Assembly: GCA_950295325.1 (NCBI GenBank)
Contig: OX485807.1
Coordinates: 49,506,440-49,570,439, forward strand
Source: Polytrichum commune
Taxonomy: Eukaryota; Streptophyta; Polytrichopsida; Polytrichales; Polytrichaceae
Direction of reading: 5' to 3'
Length of the DNA: 64,000 nucleotides
The position numbers were made by a program, and so were the translations under genes. Positions 6,520 through 53,243 of this stretch are shown here, piece after piece. The first letter of the stretch is position 1; every line of letters begins with the position of its first letter. Below the pieces are notes generated by a model that saw only the letters and a list, made by a program, of their open reading frames with translations, made no database searches and had not been told where the DNA came from.

Positions 6520-7346
6520 CTGAGACTGAAATGTAAGTAGCACTGAATCCTTAAGCCGCATTTCCTTTTCCTCCATTACAAGCAGCTCATACAACTGCTG
6601 AGAAATCTCTTGTGGAAGCTTCATCTCCCCATTCTCCTTCCTCAGTGTTTCAATTGTCTGCCTCATTACATACTTATCAGTCTCCAGTCACTTCAATAGA
6701 ATTGTCAATTTTTTTACCTCTTCTTCCATTAAGGTCTTTATATATCTTCTCCTGGGTAATGACGCATGTGTAAATCCTTGTACTGTACCCTTCCTTCAAT
6801 AGCTTCCCGCTCAGTTACACAATCTATAGTATCTTGAGCGAGAATTGTGGTCTGACTCGGGCAATCCAACTCTTGTTCGTCCCTGTTTCGAGGGTCGTCT
6901 TCTTCAAGATTGGCAGAATCTGCCTTCCCAAGACACTCCAAGAAATAGGTTGATACATCTCCACAACTGATGAATCGTAAAAGTTCCCTACACCCTCCGT
7001 GAAAACCACGGGACCTTCATACATAGAATTTTTAACCTCGTAGTCATCCTGCACATATACAGCTTCGTTTGGACATTCTTGTGAGCTTTCCATGAATATC
7101 CTACATGCGCCATCGTCATCAACTCTTCCATCATTTACACCTGTCATCTACTGTTATTCGTCAATTCTGCTCTTTCCAAGTGAGACATTTCAACCCAGCC
7201 TCGCTCCATACAATCTCCTTCTGCAAAAAGATGGCGCCGCAGTGAGTCATCTCTGGTGATCTCTTGCATGGAAGTGTCATGCTTCTTTAATCTCATGGAA
7301 CTTGAGTCTCCTTGTGATGGACTTTGTGGTTTAGACCTAGATTTCA
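6520..7346 (-). pseudogene. DUF593/MyoB-like gene, 3' part, broken by frame changes and an in-frame TGA
   Basis: Downstream of the intact exon 7347-8813, coding-like sequence continues on the minus strand but hops between frames: 7350-7144, 7147-6824, 6941-6738, then 6780-6520. The last segment is clearly the conserved C-terminal coiled coil of this family. It reads YIKTLMEEEVKKLTILLK, then a TGA at 6690-6688, then LETDKYVMRQTIETLRKENG and QEISQQLYEL. In relatives the stop position is an ordinary residue inside 'LTERLQALEADRxFxxxTI'. A good donor (CAG|GTACTT) follows at 6520. Some frame changes could be short introns: for instance CCAA|GTAACC near 7367 with acceptor CTTTTTGCAG near 7221 joins frames cleanly. 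I found no intron that removes the TGA and keeps the conserved residues on both sides. So this is either a decaying gene or an assembly/sequence error. Confidence 0.55.
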
Positions 7347-8813
7347 GCACTTTTGGGTCAGGTTACTTGGATGTAAGGTCCTTATTTGTTGTTGAAGCTG
7401 CCCCTCCAACTTCCACACATACTCCAACATTGAAATCCTTTTCTCTTCTATACATCTATCCTCACTATCTTTATCAAGAGTATTCAGTGCCCTTCCCTGG
7501 AAACCACGAGAGCTCCAGCTCCTTTTCAAGCTGATGAACTTAGTATCCTCGGGTTTCTGATCATTCCTATTACCTAATTCCCCGATCTGGTTCCCCTCAC
7601 TTTCAACAAGATCTTGCGAACTATTCTCAAGACCTGTCTGAAGCGAATGTAACAGTGGAGCATTCTCATTTTCATCCTCTTCATTCGAAACAACACTATC
7701 TTGCAGTGAGGTTTTCAAGTTTGGATTGCAGGTTGCATTATCGAAAACAACAGACTCCTGTAGATGACTGGGAAAAGGTTCATAAATTCCTTCTAGTGAA
7801 AATTCAGATGTCAAAATTTGGGTATCAGCCTTATCTATCCTATTAAGATATCTACTCTCTGACTGACCTTCATTGATAACCTTTGCGCGCGCACCTATCT
7901 TTACAGTTTCTATCATCATTTCTGGTTCAGCAATTTGTACGTTCCTCCTTGGTTCAGCAACCATTTCCTGGAAACTAAATGTATGCCTTCCCACCTCATC
8001 TCTCTCCCCCTCCATCAGAAGAAGACTGTCCAGCGTTTCTCGGCACACACGTACCTCATCCTCCAAGGCGATCTTCTCTTCTTCGTGGTTCACAATGATA
8101 TCCTGCAGAACTTCTATAGCCTCCTGGTCATACAACACATTTTCCATAACCATACGCTGAAATTGTCGAGCTTCTAGTTGTAACGCAGCTTTCTCTTCCT
8201 GTAAACGAGAAATCATGGCCAAAGCTTCACTAGCAGCTGTAGCAGAAGAATTTCTCTCCTGGTCTAGTTCCACGTATAAGGCAGCAAGAGCTTCGCGTTC
8301 CGCTTTAAGAGCTTCCATCAATTCTTTGTCTCTTAACTCTTGCTTCCTGTCTGCAGATTCTTGAACTTTGCAATCCTCCAAATCCGATGTTGCGAAATTG
8401 ATAGATGATGATGGACTTCCACTCTCAGTTTCCTCACAAGAGTCCCCCATTGACATTTCAATAACCTCACCATGCCTATACTCCACTGGAATAAGAACAG
8501 TTGAACACTCCGCAGATGCTCCTCTGCAAAAGTTTCCAGAAATTTCTTTGTCCCGAAGAGGAACAGAGCGACTTCTTATTAGACTGGAATCCTCCACAAC
8601 GAAGCCCCTTTCCTTTTCCCCTTGCTGAACATGTGCAGAACAGAGAACACAAGGAACGTACAAGCCAGAGGCTCTTATAATTCTGAGAGTGAGGAAGTGG
8701 AGAAGAGCACACGCGAGAATCAAAACAGCTACAACCACGTCTATGCAAGCTTGCAACAAGGAAGCTAAACTCCATTCTAACGCGACGCTATTCTGTATAT
8801 TTCTCCGTGCCAT
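7347..8813 (-). CDS. GTD-binding (DUF593) membrane protein, myosin-binding-protein-like, first exon
   Basis: 489 codons are open from ATG 8813. In-frame codons further upstream are not ATG, so this is the best start. Residues 20-46 form one membrane helix. They are followed by a VPCVLCSAH motif, like the 'PCxxCSRxDH' motif of MyoB/FLOURY1-like proteins. Residues 160-262 match the GTD-binding domain: a heptad-rich coiled coil (ALKAEREALAALYVELDQER, then AMISRLQEEKAAL and ARQFQRMVMENVLYDQEAIE). Relatives are receptors for class XI myosins on endomembrane vesicles, binding the myosin globular tail; for this protein that is inference. The rest of the exon is acidic and low-complexity, and ends with a second coiled-coil start (MLEYVWKLEGQLQQQ). 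The frame stops at TGA 7346-7344. The usual C-terminal coiled coil is found downstream, but in a damaged state (see 6520-7346), so the locus may be a pseudogene despite this clean exon. Confidence 0.7.
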
Positions 8814-9017
8814 CACCAGTCTGCCCGTTGCTCTCACTACAAGTTACATTTTGTAAACGGTTTTTCAAGGTTTCTTGAATCCGTGAGCGCAGCGTAACAT
8901 GGATATCCCCCGTCAGTCACTGTTGCCATTGTGTACCGTGTAGGAAGAAGTGAAAATCCGTCGAGGGAGCCTGAGAAGCCACGGAGTTTAAGCAGAAGCG
9001 AGGTAACTGCAAGCACG

Positions 9018-21648: not shown

Positions 21649-23124
21649 TTAAGACTGCTGGAAATTCCTGTCCTCAGGAGCTGGTAGGAATGGAAATGGG
21701 GCAGCAGACAGGGCAGCAATAGGAGGCCGAACAGGCCAATAAGACCAATCGCGCTTCTCATTCTTCCTTACACCTTCTAAATTGACATAAACAAATGGAC
21801 CGTGAGCTGTCGAATTTCCTTCTGTTGTCTCTGCCTCCAATTTGCTGTCTGTGAGAGAATTGGGGTTTGGAATTCTCTGGTAGATCATGGCGGTCGACAA
21901 AACCACCAAGTAGAGCAAACTAGCCCGAAAGAGTGTGCGAGCTGCAATTGCATTAGGAGAGAAGTAGAACGAAGTCGCGGTGGCTCCAAGGCCAGCGCTT
22001 AGCAGCATCATCTCTAGTCCAAAATACCCAGATGCAACATCAAGCTCCTTCGCAAGAAAACCCAATGGCACAAGGTAAATACAATTCCGCAACGCTGCGA
22101 GCGCTGTTCGTCGACCGGACATGTCGCCAAGCGAGAGCATTTTGTACCTACCCGCAGCGTAGTCGCGACGACATAGAAACGCCAACGCCATGAAGTGAGG
22201 AATTTGCCAAAAGTACAAAGTTGCACCGAGAATCCAACCGCCCGCATCGATCTGCCCCGCCGCAGCCGCCCATCCCATGAGAGGAGGAATGGCACCTACG
22301 ACCGCACCAACCCATGTGTTCACCCAATGAATCTGCTTAAGAGGAGTGTACACAAGTGTGTACAACAAAAGGTTCCCAGCCCCTAACTCCGTGGTTAATG
22401 CATTTGTTTTGTAAGCCAACAACATAACCCCGCCAACACCCGCGGTAACTGCAAAGGCTGTTGCATGTAACACTCCCATGCGTCCAGAAGGGAGAGGTCT
22501 ACGCATCGTCCTCTTCATCCTGGCGTCATTCGCAATTTCCATAATTTGGTTGAATGCATTTGCAGAGCACGATGTCATCATGGTCCCAGCTGACATCCAT
22601 GCTAGCCCTGCCCAATCCACCACCTCCCCGCTGCCCATCACAAACCCTAACCCTGCTGTCATCACCACCAGGATGCTCAGCCGCACCTTTGAAAGCTCCG
22701 AGTAGCATTGCACCGCGGATTTGATCGAAGCCAAGAGGCTCAATCTCTCCCCAACCTCCTTCCCTAATCCTCCATTCGAAACCCTACCGATCAAACCCTT
22801 CTTCCCGGTCCATGCCACCGCTGCGCTTGCCGTCCCCCGAGAGCACACGGCCACGTTCACAGTCAGCTGGAATCTCCGAAGAATTTCGTTCCTTGCAATT
22901 CCCACGGTGTGTGGAAGACTGCCGCTGCCGTTGCTCTTCACACCGCACGAGGAGAATGTGTGGAATCCCTTGACCCCGAATTTCGTTGATCCCGCAAGGA
23001 GGCCGTGAATGTTGTTAAGGTGCCGATGATGTCCATCATGTGCGATCCACCTTGCCGCTTGTTTCTGAAGCGGATGTGAGCGCGCGGCTGATTGCAGCCG
23101 CAGCAGCAGCGCTAATGCGGCCAT
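21649..23124 (-). CDS. COX10: Heme O synthase (protoheme IX farnesyltransferase), mitochondrial
   Basis: A 491-residue single-exon UbiA-family prenyltransferase that converts heme b to heme O for cytochrome c oxidase assembly in the mitochondrial inner membrane. Residues 1-35 (MAALALLLRLQSAARSHPLQ...) look like a presequence: Arg-rich, with no acidic residue before position 30. Residues 140-165 hold the YSELSKVRLSILVVMTAGLG start. The first prenyl-diphosphate/Mg motif is at 189-212 (NAFNQIMEIANDARMKRTM, then RRPLPSG). The second is at 321-340 (DYAAGRYKMLSLGDMSGRRT). About eight to nine hydrophobic helices span 150-415. The ~75-residue tail ends in a Pro-rich segment. ATG 23124 is chosen because the in-frame codons upstream are non-ATG and the presequence starts there. 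The frame is clean and key motifs are intact, so it should be functional. A (CT)n run lies about 75-98 bp upstream of the ATG. Confidence 0.93.
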   Translation of the reverse strand: MAALALLLRLQSAARSHPLQKQAARWIAHDGHHRHLNNIHGLLAGSTKFGVKGFHTFSSCGVKSNGSGSLPHTVGIARNEILRRFQLTVNVAVCSRGTASAAVAWTGKKGLIGRVSNGGLGKEVGERLSLLASIKSAVQCYSELSKVRLSILVVMTAGLGFVMGSGEVVDWAGLAWMSAGTMMTSCSANAFNQIMEIANDARMKRTMRRPLPSGRMGVLHATAFAVTAGVGGVMLLAYKTNALTTELGAGNLLLYTLVYTPLKQIHWVNTWVGAVVGAIPPLMGWAAAAGQIDAGGWILGATLYFWQIPHFMALAFLCRRDYAAGRYKMLSLGDMSGRRTALAALRNCIYLVPLGFLAKELDVASGYFGLEMMLLSAGLGATATSFYFSPNAIAARTLFRASLLYLVVLSTAMIYQRIPNPNSLTDSKLEAETTEGNSTAHGPFVYVNLEGVRKNEKRDWSYWPVRPPIAALSAAPFPFLPAPEDRNFQQS

Positions 23125-23198
23125 GACGGGAACACCATAGCCAGCGCGATCGCTGCAACGAAACAAGCGAAGCTACACACACAAACAAACAACTAAAT

Positions 23199-41165: not shown

Positions 41166-41283
41166 AAATGGGTTATTATTTTGGGCAGATATGCTATAGC
41201 CCAGGCTACAGGAGCTGTCAAATCCATCCTCCTGAAAATTCGATTGCAAGGGCCACAACAAGCGGAAACACAAATTATTCAAG

Positions 41284-42950
41284 ATGGCAGTCCCCGCAGT
41301 AGCCATGAGCTTATTGCACAGCCACGCAAGCTTATTCCACTCCAAAAGCCTCACGAGGTCGTGCTCCACAGGGCCTGCGCGGAACCCTCTCCTTCGGACA
41401 GCTGCGCTTGGAGGCAGCACTCGCAGTGTTCCCTTCCCGGCTTCCCTCAAACCCAACCACCTGCGAACGTCCACGAAACGAAACTCCAGCATGTCATTCA
41501 ACAATGGCAGCATGGCAGAGAATTTCAGCGAGAAAGATGAGGACTATGTGGACTCTTCGATTGTGGAAGCGTTGGAAGTGCGGAGCGGGCCTGATGGCTT
41601 TGTGATCAGAATGCGCGATGGTTGCTTGCTCAAGTGCATCCACAACAAGTCGGAGGGTGGCAAACTCCCTGTCTATGCGGCCCAACCAGCCATTGTTTTG
41701 CAACTGAACGATGGATCTAACCTGCTGCTTCCAATTATTGTTCTGGAGCTCCCAAACACTATGCTCCTCGAAGCCGTCCGAAATGTACAAGTCTCACGGC
41801 CTACTGTGTACCAAGTGATGAGCAAGATGCTGGATGTGCTTGGGTACCGTGCGAAGCTCGTCCGGGTGACGAAACGAGTAAACGAGGCTTACTATGCCAG
41901 GGTTTACCTTGTTAAAGATGGAGATGACACTCAACTCCCTGTCAGCCTTGATCTTCGCCCTTCTGACGCCATCAACCTTGCTGTGCGCTGCAAAATTCCA
42001 ATTCAGGTATATACCATCTTCTTGTTGCCATCTGCTTATCCCCTTCAGTTTCTGTGAAATGTAAGCAGGTTTCCCTTCTATGGTTGACCCACATTCACTG
42101 GTTTTTGGGCTCCTATCTGTGGTTACAGTTATCTATTAGCTGGGAAAGTGTTGGGTCTTGGTTTTGGAATGTTGAATCTCTTGCTACTATGTTTTGTTGA
42201 TTTACTGCTGCTGTTGAGAAGAGATTCTTGATGTAACTTGTACAGCATGTGGTGCATTGTGTACAACTGCTTGTTGCTATCTGTTTATTCCCTTTAGTTT
42301 CTGCTAAATGTAAAGTCATCACTGTCTCTTCACAGTTTTTTCCACCTTTGGTTGACCTACATTCACTTGTTGTTGGAAATCCATATTTAGATGCAGTTAT
42401 CAGTTATTTGAGATGCTCATGGCGATTCTTTGCCCAATTTAGCCGAAAAGTTTCTCTTTAGTTCTGGACTGTGGATTCTGTTTCTGCTATATATTGTTGA
42501 TTTTCTGCTTCTGTTGCGAGGAGATTCCTGATACGATTTGTACATTGTGGCAATGTAATGTCGATCTCGGTTCTGAACTGCACTGTAATGTTGTATATGT
42601 GTGATACAGTGAGTTGCCTGAATTGGATTTTTGCATCACACATGGAGAAACTGTTCTGATTGGTTTTCTTAAATATTTTCTACTTTCAGGTCAACAAGGA
42701 CCTAGCCATATTGGATGGGGTGCGCATTGTGAGTGAGACAGAGAAGCTGCCATTCACCATTGTCAAGGATGGGAAGATAATCACAGATATGGACAAGCCC
42801 GAGGCTGGAGAATGTGAAGAAGCTAAGGAACTCATTCTTGTACGTAACATGTTAATTGCAGCTGTGGAGGAGAGGTACATAGACGCTGCAAAGCTGCGGG
42901 ACGAACTCCAGCAGTTCAGGTCCATTTCCAAGAAGCAAAAGCAAACATAA
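41284..42950 (+). CDS. BBD-type bifunctional nuclease (DUF151 + UVR), two coding exons
   Basis: Coding segments are 41284-42006 and 42690-42950, with the intron CAG|GTATAT ... TTTCAG|GTC in phase 0, giving 327 residues. Residues 128-245 are the DUF151 bifunctional nuclease domain (AAQPAIVLQ, LPIIVLELPNTMLLEA, SLDLRPSDAINLAVRCKIPI). Residues 286-318 are a UVR-like helical motif (AAVEERYIDAAKLRDELQQF). Plant relatives (BBD1/2, wound-induced OmBBD) have RNase and DNase activity and the same domain order and length. The first 70-80 residues are Ser/Arg-rich and low in acidic residues until 80, so an organelle transit peptide is possible, though nuclear localisation is reported for some relatives. 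ATG 41284 lies just after the proposed 5'-UTR splice acceptor at 41188. Failure to splice the coding intron would add 16 residues and stop at 42057, removing the UVR motif. Confidence 0.88.
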
Positions 42951-47927: not shown

Positions 47928-48815
47928 GAAATGGGCCATGTGAAAGGAATAGGCAATAGATGATACTATCAGGGTATGTATCATGTGGAGTCTTTCAACA
48001 AATGTTGGGGATGTGTGCAACTTGGCAGATTTATTGGCATTGAAGGAATACCACTTGAATGGGTATAGGTAGAATAGTAGAATAGTACTACTCTACTCTA
48101 TTGTACTCTTTTGCATTCATCCTACATTTCATTAGAGTAGAGTAGAGTGGCAATGAATAAGAAGATAGAGCCTCTCATAGTGAAGTTGCTTGTTTTACTT
48201 TACCCTAGGTGTCGTGGTACACTTTTATGCTATTTAGTGTCACATAAACTACTCAACTACGCAACTATGCAACCTAAACATATGTATAGTTGAGTTGAGC
48301 ATTCGATTCCCATGTATGAAGGTGAATAACTAGCAACATTTAGGTGCACACTAGAATCTCAGAAGAATGTAAGACTAAATTTTGGATCTTATCAATTGAA
48401 AGAGAAAATTCCAAGATCAAAATTATCCATAAAGTAAAGCAAATGAAACCATGGGTTTAGTCCCAAACCACGAGTTTATGAGAATTAACACAAAGTCACT
48501 CAAATTATCTTAATGCTTAAATTATCACACCCAAAGAATAATGAGTCCCATGCGCATACCCTATTTTAGATCCTTACATTCTCTCAAAAAATTTGAAGTG
48601 AAAAAAGAAGGTCTTAAAAGTTTCACCCAACTTTCACAATAGACTTTGAAAGACGATGAGCTAACAAGCTCTTAATAGAATTTTTTTTCTTAAAGAAGGA
48701 CCAAACCCATAGTCCATCCCTCTTTGAGGAACTTTACAGATAACTCTATTTGAGTTCCCAGACTTTTCTCCAGCTTACATGGGTGCCAGCTAGGCCAACA
48801 GCCTTTAAAAATCTG
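47928..48815. other. Intergenic, upstream of the GST gene
   Basis: A small TAGAGTAG-type inverted repeat lies at 48070-48160. No gene was seen. Confidence 0.4.
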
Positions 48816-49051
48816 ACGTGGCAAATGTGGCAGCGGACAACAGAGAACCCCCAAATGGTCGACGATGGATCCCTATTGGTGCATGCCCTGCCACTTTAGG
48901 ATATTCCTCATCCACTAAAATTCCATCCGCAAATCAAACGATGTCACCAACGATATTCATCCAGGTCGCCTGGTGGTCACCCGCTGCATTTGCACGTGGG
49001 CAGTAATTTCTGCCCGATTAAACACGTGTAATCCGTGATTCTCAACACGTG
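48816..49051 (+). promoter_or_regulatory. G-box cluster upstream of the TCHQD GST gene
   Basis: Three CACGTG hexamers lie at 48993-48998, 49023-49028 and 49046-49051 (the last reads CACGTGGC), and an ACGTGGC core lies at 48816-48822. They are 160-220 bp (and ~390 bp) upstream of the ATG at 49211. G-box/ABRE elements bind bZIP and bHLH factors in light, ABA and stress responses. That this cluster controls the GST gene is inferred from position. Confidence 0.5.
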
Positions 49052-49210
49052 GCATCACTTGGACGGGCACTGACGGGCTCCCCTGTTCTCCTGCTACCGG
49101 CCCCCTGTTATCGTTCCCATCCTTCACTCTCTCTCGGGACACGAAAGAAAAAATTCTGCTGAAAAGCTTCGAAGTATTTATGCACTTGGAATAGTTCGCA
49201 GGTCGCATAA

Positions 49211-52200
49211 ATGGAGCAGATTCTGTGTCGCAGCATTGTGACTGCTGCGTCGTGCAAACTGTTATCGGCTCCTGCGGCGAGAGGAGTGCAAGGAACTCCA
49301 GCAAGGAGCTGTTCGCTGTTGCGAATCTCGAGACGAAAAAACTGTGGCGAATCGTTGACCTCCCGAGTTCTGGTATCGGGGGAAAGTGCAGAATCGGTTC
49401 ATGGGTGGAGGACTACAGGTGGCGGTCTCATCGTAGGGCTCGGTGAGTGTTCGCATTAGTTGGTTGGTGGTGGTTGCATATTTGGTTTGTCTGCGGTTGT
49501 TTTGGGCATGCGAATATGTGTATGTGTGGTCTCAACGTGTTAAACGAATTTTGAAAGACTCTTAAATATGAGTGATTTCAACACAGAGCAGATGCCTGTG
49601 TGACTGTTTCCCTGGGCGAGGGTTCGCATTTTAGGCGGTCTCGACGAATTCTGAAAGATTCTAGAATATAAGGGGAATCCAAACAGAACAGGACACTGTA
49701 TGACTAGTTCCTTGCGTTGAGGATTCGCAATTTGGATGGTCTCAAGATGTTGAATGGATTTTAGAAGATTCTCGAATAGGAGGGGATCCAAATCATAGCA
49801 GAAACCTGTGTGACTGTTCCCATTGTGTTCGATATAATATTTCTGTAGAATGAGAGATGTGTCAGCCTCGGGTTGATAGAGAGGTCGAGGAATTTATAAC
49901 TTTGGGAATGTGGAAATGGGTATTTCTATCGAAGATATCTGGATTGGCTGTGGCCTCCGTTTTGGAAAAATGCTCCTGGATCAATTGGTATTCCTTCAGC
50001 TGTGGGTTGCTGAATGTCATCTCCAATGCAATACATCGCTCTTAATGTGGACCAAAAGAAAGTGGTCTATGCTAAACCTATGTGTAATTAAAGGATCTGA
50101 ATTTCTCGAACATGAGCTATTGTTTTGGGAATGCTGATTTTGGTGCTGCGCTCCTCGCGTGTGTTTTGTCAACACTTCGAACGAATTTTGGAACATGTGG
50201 GGATTCAAAACAGAGAGAAACAGAGGAAAACAGAATAGAACCCTTTGTGGCTCTTCCCATCTTGTTCGAAGGAACTTCTCTGTTCGGGAAGAGGTGTTTG
50301 AGCCACGTGGTGATAGAGAGGTTGAGGATTTGCAACTAGTCGGAATGTGGAATTGGGTATTTCCAAGCTACGACACCTGGATTGGTTATGGACTCTGTTT
50401 GGAATTACGATAATTGTTTTGGAGCTTCCTTCAGCTAAGGATTGCTAGAACATTTCTTCAAGCAATATCTCGTTCTTGATGTGGAGCAAAGGAGAGTGGT
50501 GTATGCTAAACATATATGTAAAATTGACGGTTTAAATTCCTGGATGAGAAGAGTGGTGAATAGGGTATGTGACGCCCTGGATTAGTTTAAGGGCATTGCA
50601 ACAATAGTAAGAAATCTAGCAGACGTTTTCTGGGATATAATTTGTGTATTCTGTTAAGAGAATTGCATTACCCACAGGAAGGAGAAATAGGTGTTATGGT
50701 ATCAGGTCTTTGTGTCGGTTTTTGGATGTATGTACTCACAAGATAGTTTTTAAAGAAAATCTTGGATTTCTGTGTACAAATAATTTGCGAAGGTTTCATT
50801 ACACTGCAGCTCCTGCTTGACATATAGGTTTGGTTGTGTCTTTGACATGAAGTTGCTATTTGTAGTCAATGTAAATAGTTTACATGTCGTTGATCTTGTT
50901 GTGACATTATTCAACAGAGAGTTCATGCTCCCTTTCCATTTGCAGTCTTTCACTGTATCCTTAGATTCACCTCGAGTTCGCACTGTTTTGTCCTCACCCT
51001 TGCTCCTTTATGCCTGGGTTAAGAGAACGACTTCACAGAACTGAATAGCGTTCTGAGTGAGATCCAAGTGGATTGTCGGATTTATTTTTAATACAGATCA
51101 GCTTGTTAATCGATTTTTTGAGCTGATATATGGATTTCTTATGGTAGCAGGAGATTCAAAGGTGCAGAGGAGGGCAGTGGTGAGGCACTGCGCTGCTGCG
51201 TGGCTTGTTGTGTGCACGGCAGCCATGGCTGATACAGCCCGGGCGCAGCCTAGCGGTACGTGTAACAATTCTAAAACTCTTCCTCCGCCTGAAGGGCTTT
51301 TGAAAACTCTTTGTAAAGTTAAGAAAGAACCTCAAAGGATGATTTGGAATAGTAAATTCTGACATACTCAAATTCTTGCTCAAGGTTTGATAGTGGATGG
51401 TGGTTTTGTATTCTGGTTGTCCAGGTTCGGATGGTGCTTCCACGCCGGGGAATCTGGTGTTCTACAACTATCCTCTTGCATTCAACCCAGCAAAGGCGAA
51501 GCTCGCATTGGAGGAAAAGGGTTTGAAGGTGATCATCTCCTTCACACCACAAAGACTAAATAAAGTCACCATATCTTCTGATTTGTTTACTGTTGGCGTG
51601 TAAGGTTTTTTGCACCATGATGTGTTCTTGTGATGTACAAATGCAAGCTGGCGTTGAGAAGCTCATGTATTTTTCAACATTTTATAGCTTAAATGTTTTT
51701 TCGGAAAATACATGAGTTCTCTTAGGCTTTAAAATACATGAGCTCATAATTTTCGTACAGTGCAGTGTAATCTGTTTTCGATTTTATATTGGATGGTCCT
51801 TTGCCTAAAGTGGTACTACGTAGATTATCTTTGCTGTTGTGTAGTTGTAAGCATTTCCTGTTTCACTCAGCAAACTGAGAAGCTTGTGTGGACTTTGGCT
51901 TGGAATGTAGTACACTGAGAAGAGAATTGACCTGTTCAATGGAGATTCGTTGAGCCCCGCGTACTTGAAGCTGAACCCAAGCGCCACAAGTCCAACCCTG
52001 GTGGCTGGAAAGGAGGTATTGACAGAGTCCTTGGCCATCATAAAGTGAGCATCTCTCTCTCTCTGTAAATATTTCAATAAATTCATGTATTTTCCAAGAT
52101 ATTATAGCCTTAAAAACACGTGTAACAGGAAAGCAGATAAAAAATAATACTTCTAAAAAGTGTTGGCCAACCTCTGCGGGTGCTCCAGATACCTGCCACC

Positions 52201-53243
52201 CAGGGGTAGAGTTGGAGCCTCACATTCAGATGGATCCATTGTAATCTGCAAAACTGCTGAAATATGTGATGCAGAGTGGTTATGGTGGTTCACAGTGATT
52301 TTAAATTCTTGCCTTTGCTGAATTAGTAAAGGCGAAGAATGATGATGTTTTGGAATTTCTCCTTTGCTGAATAGTAGTGGTTGAGAATGATGCTGCTTTG
52401 GGATCTCCTGTTTGCTGAATCAAGAATGGTGAACAATGATGTTGTTTCGGAGTCTCGAGTCTGCTAGATCAGTAATCGGGTTGAGAATGATGTTGCTTTT
52501 AAATGATGTATTTTTGGAATCATGCGTTTTCTGGAATAGTAATGGTTGAAAATAATGTTGTTTTGGAATCGTGCTTTTTCTTAAACTTGTATTAGACCTG
52601 AAGAATGAAATCAAGATGGCGTGCTTTTCGTTACAACAGGTGGGTGGACGAGCAAGGGACGCCTCTAGGTGGCGACAAAGTGGACAGGCGTTTCGTGTCC
52701 GAGTGGCTCCAGAAAGTGGACGCCTGGGACGGCAATCTGTTTGCTTCCGCGAACAGTCCCGGTGGTGGTCCGATCGAAGCCGCCACCAAGTTCAAGATCA
52801 AAGTCGCAGAGGCGAACGCGAAGCGCAACCCGGACCTGGCTGAAACCTACCAGGAGAAGATTAGGACGATGAACAAGGTGATCAATGACCCGAAAGACCC
52901 TGCCAAAGCCACGGCCAACCGGCAGCAGCTGATCGACCTCCTAAACGAAGCTGAGAGGCGGCTCAGTGCAGATTCCGGATCCAACAAGTTCCTCGCGGGG
53001 GCTGAGTACTCGGCTGCAGACGTGATATTCACACCCGTCATCTACCGCCTGTTCCTGCTCAAGAAGGATTCCGAATATTTCACGTCGCGCCCCAACATCA
53101 AACGCTACTACGAGGAGCGGATCAAGAGCCGGCCGAGCTACCGCGCCGTGTTTGCCGTGTCCGACAGCACGTTTGGGTCCGCGACGACCATCTTGCCTGC
53201 AGTTGGCAAAATTTTGTTCTCAAATCTCACAGGAAACTATTGA
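49211..53243 (+). CDS. TCHQD-class glutathione S-transferase with bipartite plastid leader, five exons
   Basis: The exons are 49211-49442, 51151-51255, 51425-51528, 51911-52044 and 52640-53243. All junctions are GT-AG and phases agree, giving 392 residues. Residues 1-78 are a Ser/Arg/Ala-rich leader with few acidic residues before 46, like a chloroplast transit peptide. Residues 84-109 read RRAVVRHCAAAWLVVCTAAM, then ADTARA: a twin-arginine motif, a hydrophobic core and an A-x-A cleavage site, i.e. a thylakoid Tat signal. Residues 122-205 are the thioredoxin-fold half (LVFYNYPLAFNPAKAKLALE, LKLNPSATSPTLV, LTESLAII). The helical half (210-370) has KFLAGAEYSAADVIFTPVIY and KSRPSYRAVF, and matches TCHQD-type GSTs, which lack such a leader as far as I recall. 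The usual N-terminal Ser/Cys region appears replaced by Ala/Asn-Pro. Function and true location are inferred. Confidence 0.8.
49530..50560 (+). repeat. Degenerate repeats inside GST intron 1
   Basis: Three ~100-bp units start near 49530, 49638 and 49738, with shared words GGTCTCaAcGtgTTgAA, GAAAGATTCTaGAATA and CTGTGTGACTGTTcCC. A larger diverged duplication also links 49740-50110 with 50165-50560, sharing GATAGAGAGGTcGAGGA, CTGGATTGGcTaTGG, TCTTgATGTGGA and GTGGTcTATGCTAAAC. It is non-coding. Confidence 0.65.
52310..52590 (+). repeat. Five ~50-bp degenerate tandem units inside GST intron 4
   Basis: Units begin near 52316, 52366, 52413, 52462 and 52531, with consensus TTGAGAATGATGTTGTTTTG preceded by GCTGAATcAGTAATGG. 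The array ends just before the splice acceptor at 52639. Confidence 0.7.

What the first reader, a model, noticed from the sequence alone, without database searches (positions are those of the whole stretch)
49211..53243. TCHQD-class GST with a stroma-plus-Tat (thylakoid lumen) leader
Exon 1 encodes a transit-peptide-like sequence. Exon 2 is almost exactly a twin-arginine signal: RRAVV, a hydrophobic core, then A-R-A. Exons 3-5 carry the GST. TCHQD GSTs as I know them are about 266 residues with no such leader. A GST in the thylakoid lumen would be new biology. The modular exon layout hints at acquisition of a leader by exon shuffling.
Basis: partly seen in the sequence, partly recalled or inferred. 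Interest (0 to 1): 0.82.

Follow-up and report, generated by a model that had tools for sequence, protein, structure and literature searches.

The report
Plant GST-like gene with lumen leader
A plant gene for a protein of the glutathione-transferase family begins with two extra exons that look like a shipping label for the inside of the photosynthetic membranes, and part of that label is shared with an unrelated enzyme gene of the same plant; if the label works, this protein sits where no glutathione transferase is known to us.

Summary
Five GT-AG exons (49211-53243, +) join into one 392-residue frame: about 80 residues like a transit peptide, a twin-arginine signal (RRAVVRHCAAAWLVVCTAAMADTARA), then a GST. 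Of 206 exon-like open segments tested in the window, only this exon fits the pattern. The same genome adds three things. (1) Exon 2 is homologous to exon 2 of an alpha/beta-hydrolase gene on another contig, with the same phase-1 introns and shared synonymous codons. (2) Paralogue B keeps a decayed leader; paralogue C and a canonical TCHQD-like gene show none. (3) A, B and C carry alanine where Ser-GSTs have the catalytic serine, so 'TCHQD class' holds only as nearest relative. Best reading: a lumen-addressed GST-fold protein that probably binds glutathione or another ligand, its Tat exon spread by exon shuffling (direction unproven). No transcript, import or orthologue data were available. Alternative in-frame starts in introns 1 and 2 and in exon 2, and mitochondrial, secretory or Sec routing, are live rivals. 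New variant of a known kind.

The parts
49211..49442 (+). Exon 1: 77 codons and 1 nt from the ATG; Ser/Arg-rich transit-peptide-like stretch; ends in phase 1 (GTGAGT)
   Evidence: first residues MEQ shared with hydrolase H1 (MEQ) and with paralogue B (VEQI, GTGGAGCAGATT); the rest of exon 1 gives no significant alignment to H1
51151..51255 (+). Exon 2: symmetric phase 1-1 exon encoding twin arginine R84-R85, hydrophobic core and A107-R108-A109 possible cleavage site
   Evidence: homologous to H1 exon 2 and to B
51225..51227 (+). Internal in-frame ATG (M103) in context GCAGCCATGGC: possible start of a leaderless 290-residue product
51141..51143 (+). In-frame ATG at the end of intron 1: a transcript starting in intron 1 could give MVAGDSKVQRRAVV..., a plain N-terminal signal
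51397..51399 (+). In-frame ATG in intron 2: a transcript starting there could give a leaderless GST
51425..51528 (+). Exon 3: start of GST thioredoxin-fold domain, including YPLAFNPAK with Ala131 at the position of the catalytic Ser
51911..52044 (+). Exon 4: rest of GST N-domain with P175 and E186-S187, residue types that bind glutathione in GSTs (recalled)
52640..53243 (+). Exon 5: helical GST C-domain and stop; its upstream intron (phase 2) is shared in position with TCHQD-like gene D
49443..51150 (+). Intron 1, phase 1, 1,708 nt
51256..51424 (+). Intron 2, phase 1, 169 nt

Best explanation
The gene encodes a precursor with a two-step chloroplast address. Exon 1 (inferred) takes it into the stroma. 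Exon 2 (inferred) is a Tat signal that carries the protein through the thylakoid membrane, with removal after A107-R108-A109. That leaves a 283-residue GST-fold protein in the lumen. The protein comes from a duplicate of the TCHQD-like GST lineage in which the catalytic serine position is alanine (shown) while P175 and E186-S187 of the glutathione site remain (shown); so it most likely binds glutathione or a hydrophobic ligand under oxidative load rather than acting as a classical conjugating Ser-GST (inferred). Exon 2 shares common descent with exon 2 of a pheophytinase-like alpha/beta-hydrolase gene in the same genome (well supported); its symmetric 1-1 phase allows insertion into a phase-1 intron such as the one modelled just before the GST domain in paralogue C (inferred route; direction of transfer not shown).
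For: Continuous spliced frame with GT-AG introns. Tat-like pattern found only in this exon among 206 open AG..GT segments of the window. RRAVVR here and RRAFVR in H1 resemble the Tat consensus SRRxFLK (consensus recalled; sequences). In a genome search the exon-2 peptide matched itself, H1 (62% over 37 residues, E 0.0048) and one chance stretch. A-H1 codons: 12 of 20 identical residues (Met and Trp left out) use the same codon, 5.9 expected, P about 0.004-0.008, from a small codon sample. Alignment score A-H1 88 against A-PsbQ 27 and H1-PsbQ 46. The 12-nt length difference between A and H1 within exon 2 lies upstream of the internal ATG and keeps the frame. TatC and PsbQ matches exist in the genome. 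pN below pS among A, B, C in exon 5 (0.25-0.29 against 0.63-0.70). Glutathione has been immunolabelled in the lumen under high light (passages of PMC9399215 and PMC4202713).
Against: No transcript or protein data. Exon 1 beyond MEQ is not conserved with H1 (shuffles reach its score 2,742 of 5,000 times for protein, 385 of 2,000 for DNA). B's leader has lost the ATG, the AxA and most of the presequence; C and D show none. B-H1 alone is weak: 8 of 16 codons shared, 4.8 expected, P 0.04-0.07; score 45, no more than H1-PsbQ. In-frame ATGs at 51141, 51225 and 51397 could start other products. NCBIfam's Tat model misses exon 2, though it misses the PsbQ control as well. Charged R89-H90 stand between RR and the core. 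The main text of an Arabidopsis lumen proteome paper holds no 'glutathione' or 'GST'.
Confidence: 0.5

Rival explanations
1. The working start lies downstream of exon 1. From M103 in exon 2 (51225) or from the ATG in intron 2 (51397) the product is a leaderless cytosolic GST; from the ATG at the end of intron 1 (51141) it has a plain N-terminal signal, MVAGDSKVQRRAVV..., and would be secretory. The full leader is then untranslated or serves a second isoform (dual targeting).
For: In-frame ATGs at 51141 and 51397 and at 51225 in context GCAGCCATGGC, the last identical in H1 (shared 20-mer GTGTGCACGGCAGCCATGGC); TCHQD-like gene D starts just before the GST domain.
Against: Residues upstream of M103 (KV.RRA.VR, AAA, L.VCTAA) are shared with H1, and the length difference there is a multiple of three, as expected of translated sequence; B shares RR and AAWLVVCTA and lacks the ATG of 51225. 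The MEQ start is shared by A and H1.
Confidence: 0.25
2. The full leader is used, but for another place: mitochondrial intermembrane space or inner membrane, the thylakoid by the Sec route, or an uncleaved membrane anchor.
For: Bipartite mitochondrial presequences have a similar plan (recalled). GDAP1, a mitochondrial membrane protein (recalled), is among the nearest solved relatives. Paralogue B's core is more hydrophobic (best 19-residue mean 1.97 against 1.62 in A) and it lacks AxA, like an anchor.
Against: Twin arginine kept in A, B and H1; RRAFVR in H1 is close to the Tat consensus (recalled); the hydrolase with the same exon resembles pheophytinase-like plastid proteins (At4g36530 recalled as its relative; named PPH-like in a passage of PMC5853334).
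Confidence: 0.2
3. The leader exons and the GST exons belong to two genes, or the leader is a decaying relic that is not spliced to the GST.
For: Decay of the leader in B; no transcripts seen; an in-frame ATG in intron 2 could serve the GST part.
Against: Phases and frame fit at all four joints.
Confidence: 0.05

Closest known systems
Plant TCHQD-class GST (in this genome: TCHQD-like gene D, G000:C5:23.05 Mb)
   Same: Nearest other GST among the candidates scored in the genome; shared phase-2 intron position; similar body length (283 and 264 residues)
   Different: D has 2 coding exons, SLNS signature and no leader seen; A has 5 exons, AFNP and a leader
GDAP1 and Phi GSTs (best solved relatives)
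   Same: GST N- and C-domains
   Different: About 50 bits only; maize GST III has Ser where A has Ala
APX relatives in or addressed to the lumen: Chlamydomonas APX2 (passages of PMC10669542) and TL29 (reference titles in the same passages)
   Same: Relative of an antioxidant enzyme lacking substrate-site residues or activity; APX2 has RR, hydrophobic stretch and AxA
   Different: Peroxidase fold; here the lumen address is inferred from sequence only
Exon-shuffled presequence of plant cytochrome c1 (Long et al. 1996, known through a passage of PMC5610209)
   Same: Organelle-targeting leader obtained from another gene's exon
   Different: Mitochondrial, donor was cytosolic GAPDH; here a Tat-type exon shared with an alpha/beta hydrolase

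Membership tests
Plant TCHQD-class GST | GST N- and C-domains | tested here: met
Plant TCHQD-class GST | Conserved active-site serine (signature often SLDS; [quoted passage not shown]
   AFNP in A, B and C; SLNS in D
Plant TCHQD-class GST | Generally two exons and on average 265 residues (PMC6540824 passages) | tested here: not met
   A: 5 exons, 392 residues; D: 2 coding exons, 264 residues
Plant TCHQD-class GST | Groups with TCHQD in a GST tree; InterPro IPR044617 (named) | not testable with these tools
   No plant TCHQD set or InterPro model at hand; among the candidates scored in this genome D is the nearest other GST (112 bits; next 28.5)
Thylakoid-lumen Tat precursor | RR, hydrophobic core, AxA | tested here: met
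   R84-R85 and A107-R108-A109; core by a rule written after seeing the exon
Thylakoid-lumen Tat precursor | Chloroplast transit peptide upstream | tested here: inconclusive
   Composition only: 11 S, 5 T, 8 R, 2 K, 0 D, 4 E in residues 1-78; no predictor
Thylakoid-lumen Tat precursor | RR- and proton-gradient-dependent import | not testable with these tools
   needs experiment
Exon-shuffled leader | Homologous exon in an unrelated gene | tested here: met
   H1 exon 2
Exon-shuffled leader | Symmetric intron phases in both genes | tested here: met
   1-1 in A and H1, gene models by hand
Exon-shuffled leader | Known donor and direction | tested here: inconclusive
   Tree of A, B, C, D unresolved (63% for B+C; AU test rejects none of 3 topologies)

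The most novel reading that the evidence does not exclude
A mobile thylakoid Tat-signal exon has been passed between a GST-lineage gene and a pheophytinase-like hydrolase gene, creating a glutathione-binding protein inside the thylakoid lumen that lacks the catalytic serine: a lumenal glutathione or pigment-breakdown ligand carrier.
Probability: 0.32. Interest if true: 0.8.

Novelty: new variant of a known kind. Interest (0 to 1): 0.58.

Why it matters
Whether glutathione works inside the thylakoid lumen is unsettled: one review says its presence there 'remains to be established' (PMC3842002, 2013, passage), others report immunolabelling under high light (passages). A lumen-addressed GST-fold protein gives that question a gene to test. 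The shared exon would also be a concrete case of a Tat signal moving between genes.

Tried and rejected

An origin in cyanobacteria was not tested.

Other copies of the leader exon: a 22-base pattern made from A, B and H1 gave 5 places with up to 2 mismatches; 3 are by construction and the other 2 (L024, L025) show no leader in translation (my first script on them failed to locate the match). DNA search with exon 2 found only itself. A third peptide hit (C2:25278521) has no RR and is chance. These peptide searches did not list B's known leader exon, so other diverged copies may have been missed too.

Hydrolase relative H2 (C5:25458026): no Tat leader seen by eye in the plus-strand frames of 45 or more codons that were printed.

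B first-exon candidates: 6 rows were listed. A 31-nt exon (MDSTTLPPCQ) was used; the contiguous frame from GTGGAGCAGATT found later fits the homology better. Neither has a transit-peptide-like stretch by eye. C's first exon (MSINQ) is hand-picked and weak; no match to ATGGAGCAGATT within two mismatches lies upstream of C's exon 3 in the fetched stretch.

Promoter scan of 48700-49220 uses bacterial models and is not informative here. Exon-shuffling precedents were also sought (524 papers with at least 3 of 4 terms, 15 listed; 6 papers).

Liu et al. 2013 on Physcomitrella GSTs (recalled) is not held; P. patens has 5 TCHQDs per a passage of PMC6540824, and I could not check whether any carries a leader.

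I added both as rivals and lowered the best explanation from 0.55 to 0.5 and the novel case from 0.35 to 0.32.

Full report
Gene model. The window lies at G000:C5:49506440-49570439 of a 408 Mb assembly in 64 contigs; the species was not identified. PsbQ and TatC matches over their cut-offs fit a plant with a Tat route. The five exons join in one frame of 392 codons with GT-AG introns of phases 1, 1, 0 and 2. Pfam finds GST_N, GST_N_2, GST_N_3, GST_C, GST_C_2 and GST_C_3 over their cut-offs. The best solved relatives are maize GST III and GDAP1 at about 50 bits ('maize' recalled).

The leader. Residues 1-78 are rich in Ser and Arg with no Asp. Exon 2 encodes R84-R85, an uncharged core and A107-R108-A109 followed by Q110, which would leave 283 residues. 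My Tat-like rule, written after seeing the exon and with the loose last term [AVSTCIL]-x-A, fits 2 of 206 open AG..GT segments of the window, both being this exon, and 1,212 of 100,000 shuffles of its own residues; it also fits B (which has no strict AxA), H1 and one PsbQ control. NCBIfam's bacterial Tat model does not list A's exon 2, nor the PsbQ control; it touches H1 weakly, E 1, below cut-off. That test is therefore uninformative.

Relatives in the same genome. tblastn with the whole protein gave 39 matches at E up to 10. They include three GST genes close to it: B (L011, C3), C (L012, C5:34.2 Mb) and D (L013, C5:23.05 Mb). Over the mature region the identities to A are 66, 58 and 36%. 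D has two coding exons, 264 residues and SLNS, close to what passages of PMC6540824 give for plant TCHQDs. A, B and C share LAFNPAKA, with Ala where Ser stands in D and in GST III. P175 and E186-S187 are invariant in all four. In exon 5, pN/pS is 0.251/0.636 for A-B, 0.289/0.698 for A-C and 0.266/0.634 for B-C, in line with purifying selection. The order of A, B and C is unresolved: bootstrap 63% of 500 for B+C, and the AU test rejects none of three topologies.

The shared exon. A hydrolase gene H1 (hand-made partial model: exons at C2:41304573-41304366, 41303450-41303322, 41302050-41301912 and 41301262-41301092, minus strand) has a first exon starting MEQ and a second exon reading GELKVPRRAFVRDGALTAAAAGLLVCTAAMAETAAVEGPPGNK, both ending in phase 1. 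Its body matches Abhydrolase_1 and _6. That the leader exons belong to the hydrolase rests on order, strand and phase, not on a transcript. I recall Arabidopsis At4g36530 as its relative; a passage of PMC5853334 names that gene among PPH-like proteins. Between A and H1, exon 2 has 20 identical residues (Met and Trp left out), 12 with the same codon against 5.9 expected (P 0.0037, or 0.0078 with A's codons fixed; codon frequencies from a small sample of these same genes), and an exact shared 20-mer. A-B shares 8 of 11 codons (3.2 expected, P 0.001-0.003); B-H1 shares 8 of 16 (4.8 expected, P 0.04-0.07). The A-H1 alignment score is 88 with 0 of 5,000 shuffles reaching it; A-B is 60 (0 of 5,000). 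Controls: H1 against PsbQ 46 (2 of 5,000), A against PsbQ 27 (172 of 5,000), B against PsbQ 29 (35 of 5,000). So Tat leaders resemble each other somewhat, but far less than A and H1 do; B-H1 alone scores 45 (0 of 5,000) and would not stand without A. Exon 1 beyond MEQ gives no significant alignment. Introns of A and H1 show no similarity at the sensitivity used. Genome searches with the exon-2 peptides list only A, H1 and one chance stretch, but they do not list B's known exon, so further diverged copies cannot be excluded.

Decay in B. B carries GTGGAGCAGATT, one base from A's ATGGAGCAGATT, 79 nt upstream of exon 2 and in one open frame with it, without the intron. Within one mismatch this 12-mer occurs once in 206,466 background positions (window and five loci, both strands), that one being the gene itself; in the roughly 670 positions searched up to the end of B's exon 2 it is the only match within two mismatches. 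B's frame lacks a transit-peptide-like stretch and the AxA. C shows no leader by tblastn; its modelled first intron is phase 1 and lies just before the GST domain, the kind of place into which a 1-1 exon can be inserted, but its first exon is hand-picked. Three scenarios stay open: one gain in the A-B-C ancestor with loss in C, a gain in A+B, or transfer from the GST gene to the hydrolase.

How it probably works. Shown: frame, splice sites, Tat-like exon, shared exon, Ala at the catalytic-serine position. Inferred: stroma then lumen, cleavage after ARA, binding of glutathione or another ligand without classical conjugation. A precedent for antioxidant-enzyme relatives in or addressed to the lumen is Chlamydomonas APX2 (passages of PMC10669542) and TL29 (reference titles there). 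The chief rival is a downstream start. In-frame ATGs stand at 51141 (end of intron 1, giving MVAGDSKVQRR..., a plain signal), at 51225 (M103, context GCAGCCATGGC) and at 51397 (intron 2). Shared residues and a frame-keeping 12-nt difference upstream of M103, and the MEQ start common to A and H1, speak for translation of the whole leader, but more than one product may be made.

Literature. Searches for a lumen GST: 'thylakoid lumen' + 'glutathione S-transferase' + 'twin-arginine', 0 papers; 'glutathione transferase' + 'thylakoid lumen', 37 papers, 25 listed; with 'lumenal proteome', 143 papers holding at least two of three terms, 20 listed; 'glutathione transferase' + 'twin arginine' + 'thylakoid lumen', 1 paper, on APX2. 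From the listings and the passages read I saw no lumen GST; most listed papers were not opened. 'Exon shuffling' + 'transit peptide' + 'thylakoid' gave 0 papers. The ten papers opened were seen as passages only.

Noticed in passing
G000:C2:41301092-41304573 (-), L014/L015: Pheophytinase-like alpha/beta-hydrolase gene with its own near-consensus Tat leader (PRRAFVRD...AMAETA) on two phase-1 exons; a lumen address for such a hydrolase would itself be unexpected.
   Followed up: partly
L011 (C3:46.197-46.200 Mb, -): Paralogue B has a fused, shortened leader whose start codon position reads GTG and whose core looks like a membrane anchor.
   Followed up: partly
window 21649-23172 (-): 507-codon open frame of the UbiA prenyltransferase family, possibly haem O synthase (recalled).
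   Followed up: no
window 41236-42057 (+): Open frame with a bifunctional nuclease domain (BFN_dom).
   Followed up: no
window 7344-8843 (-): 499-codon open frame with a Zein-binding domain.
   Followed up: no
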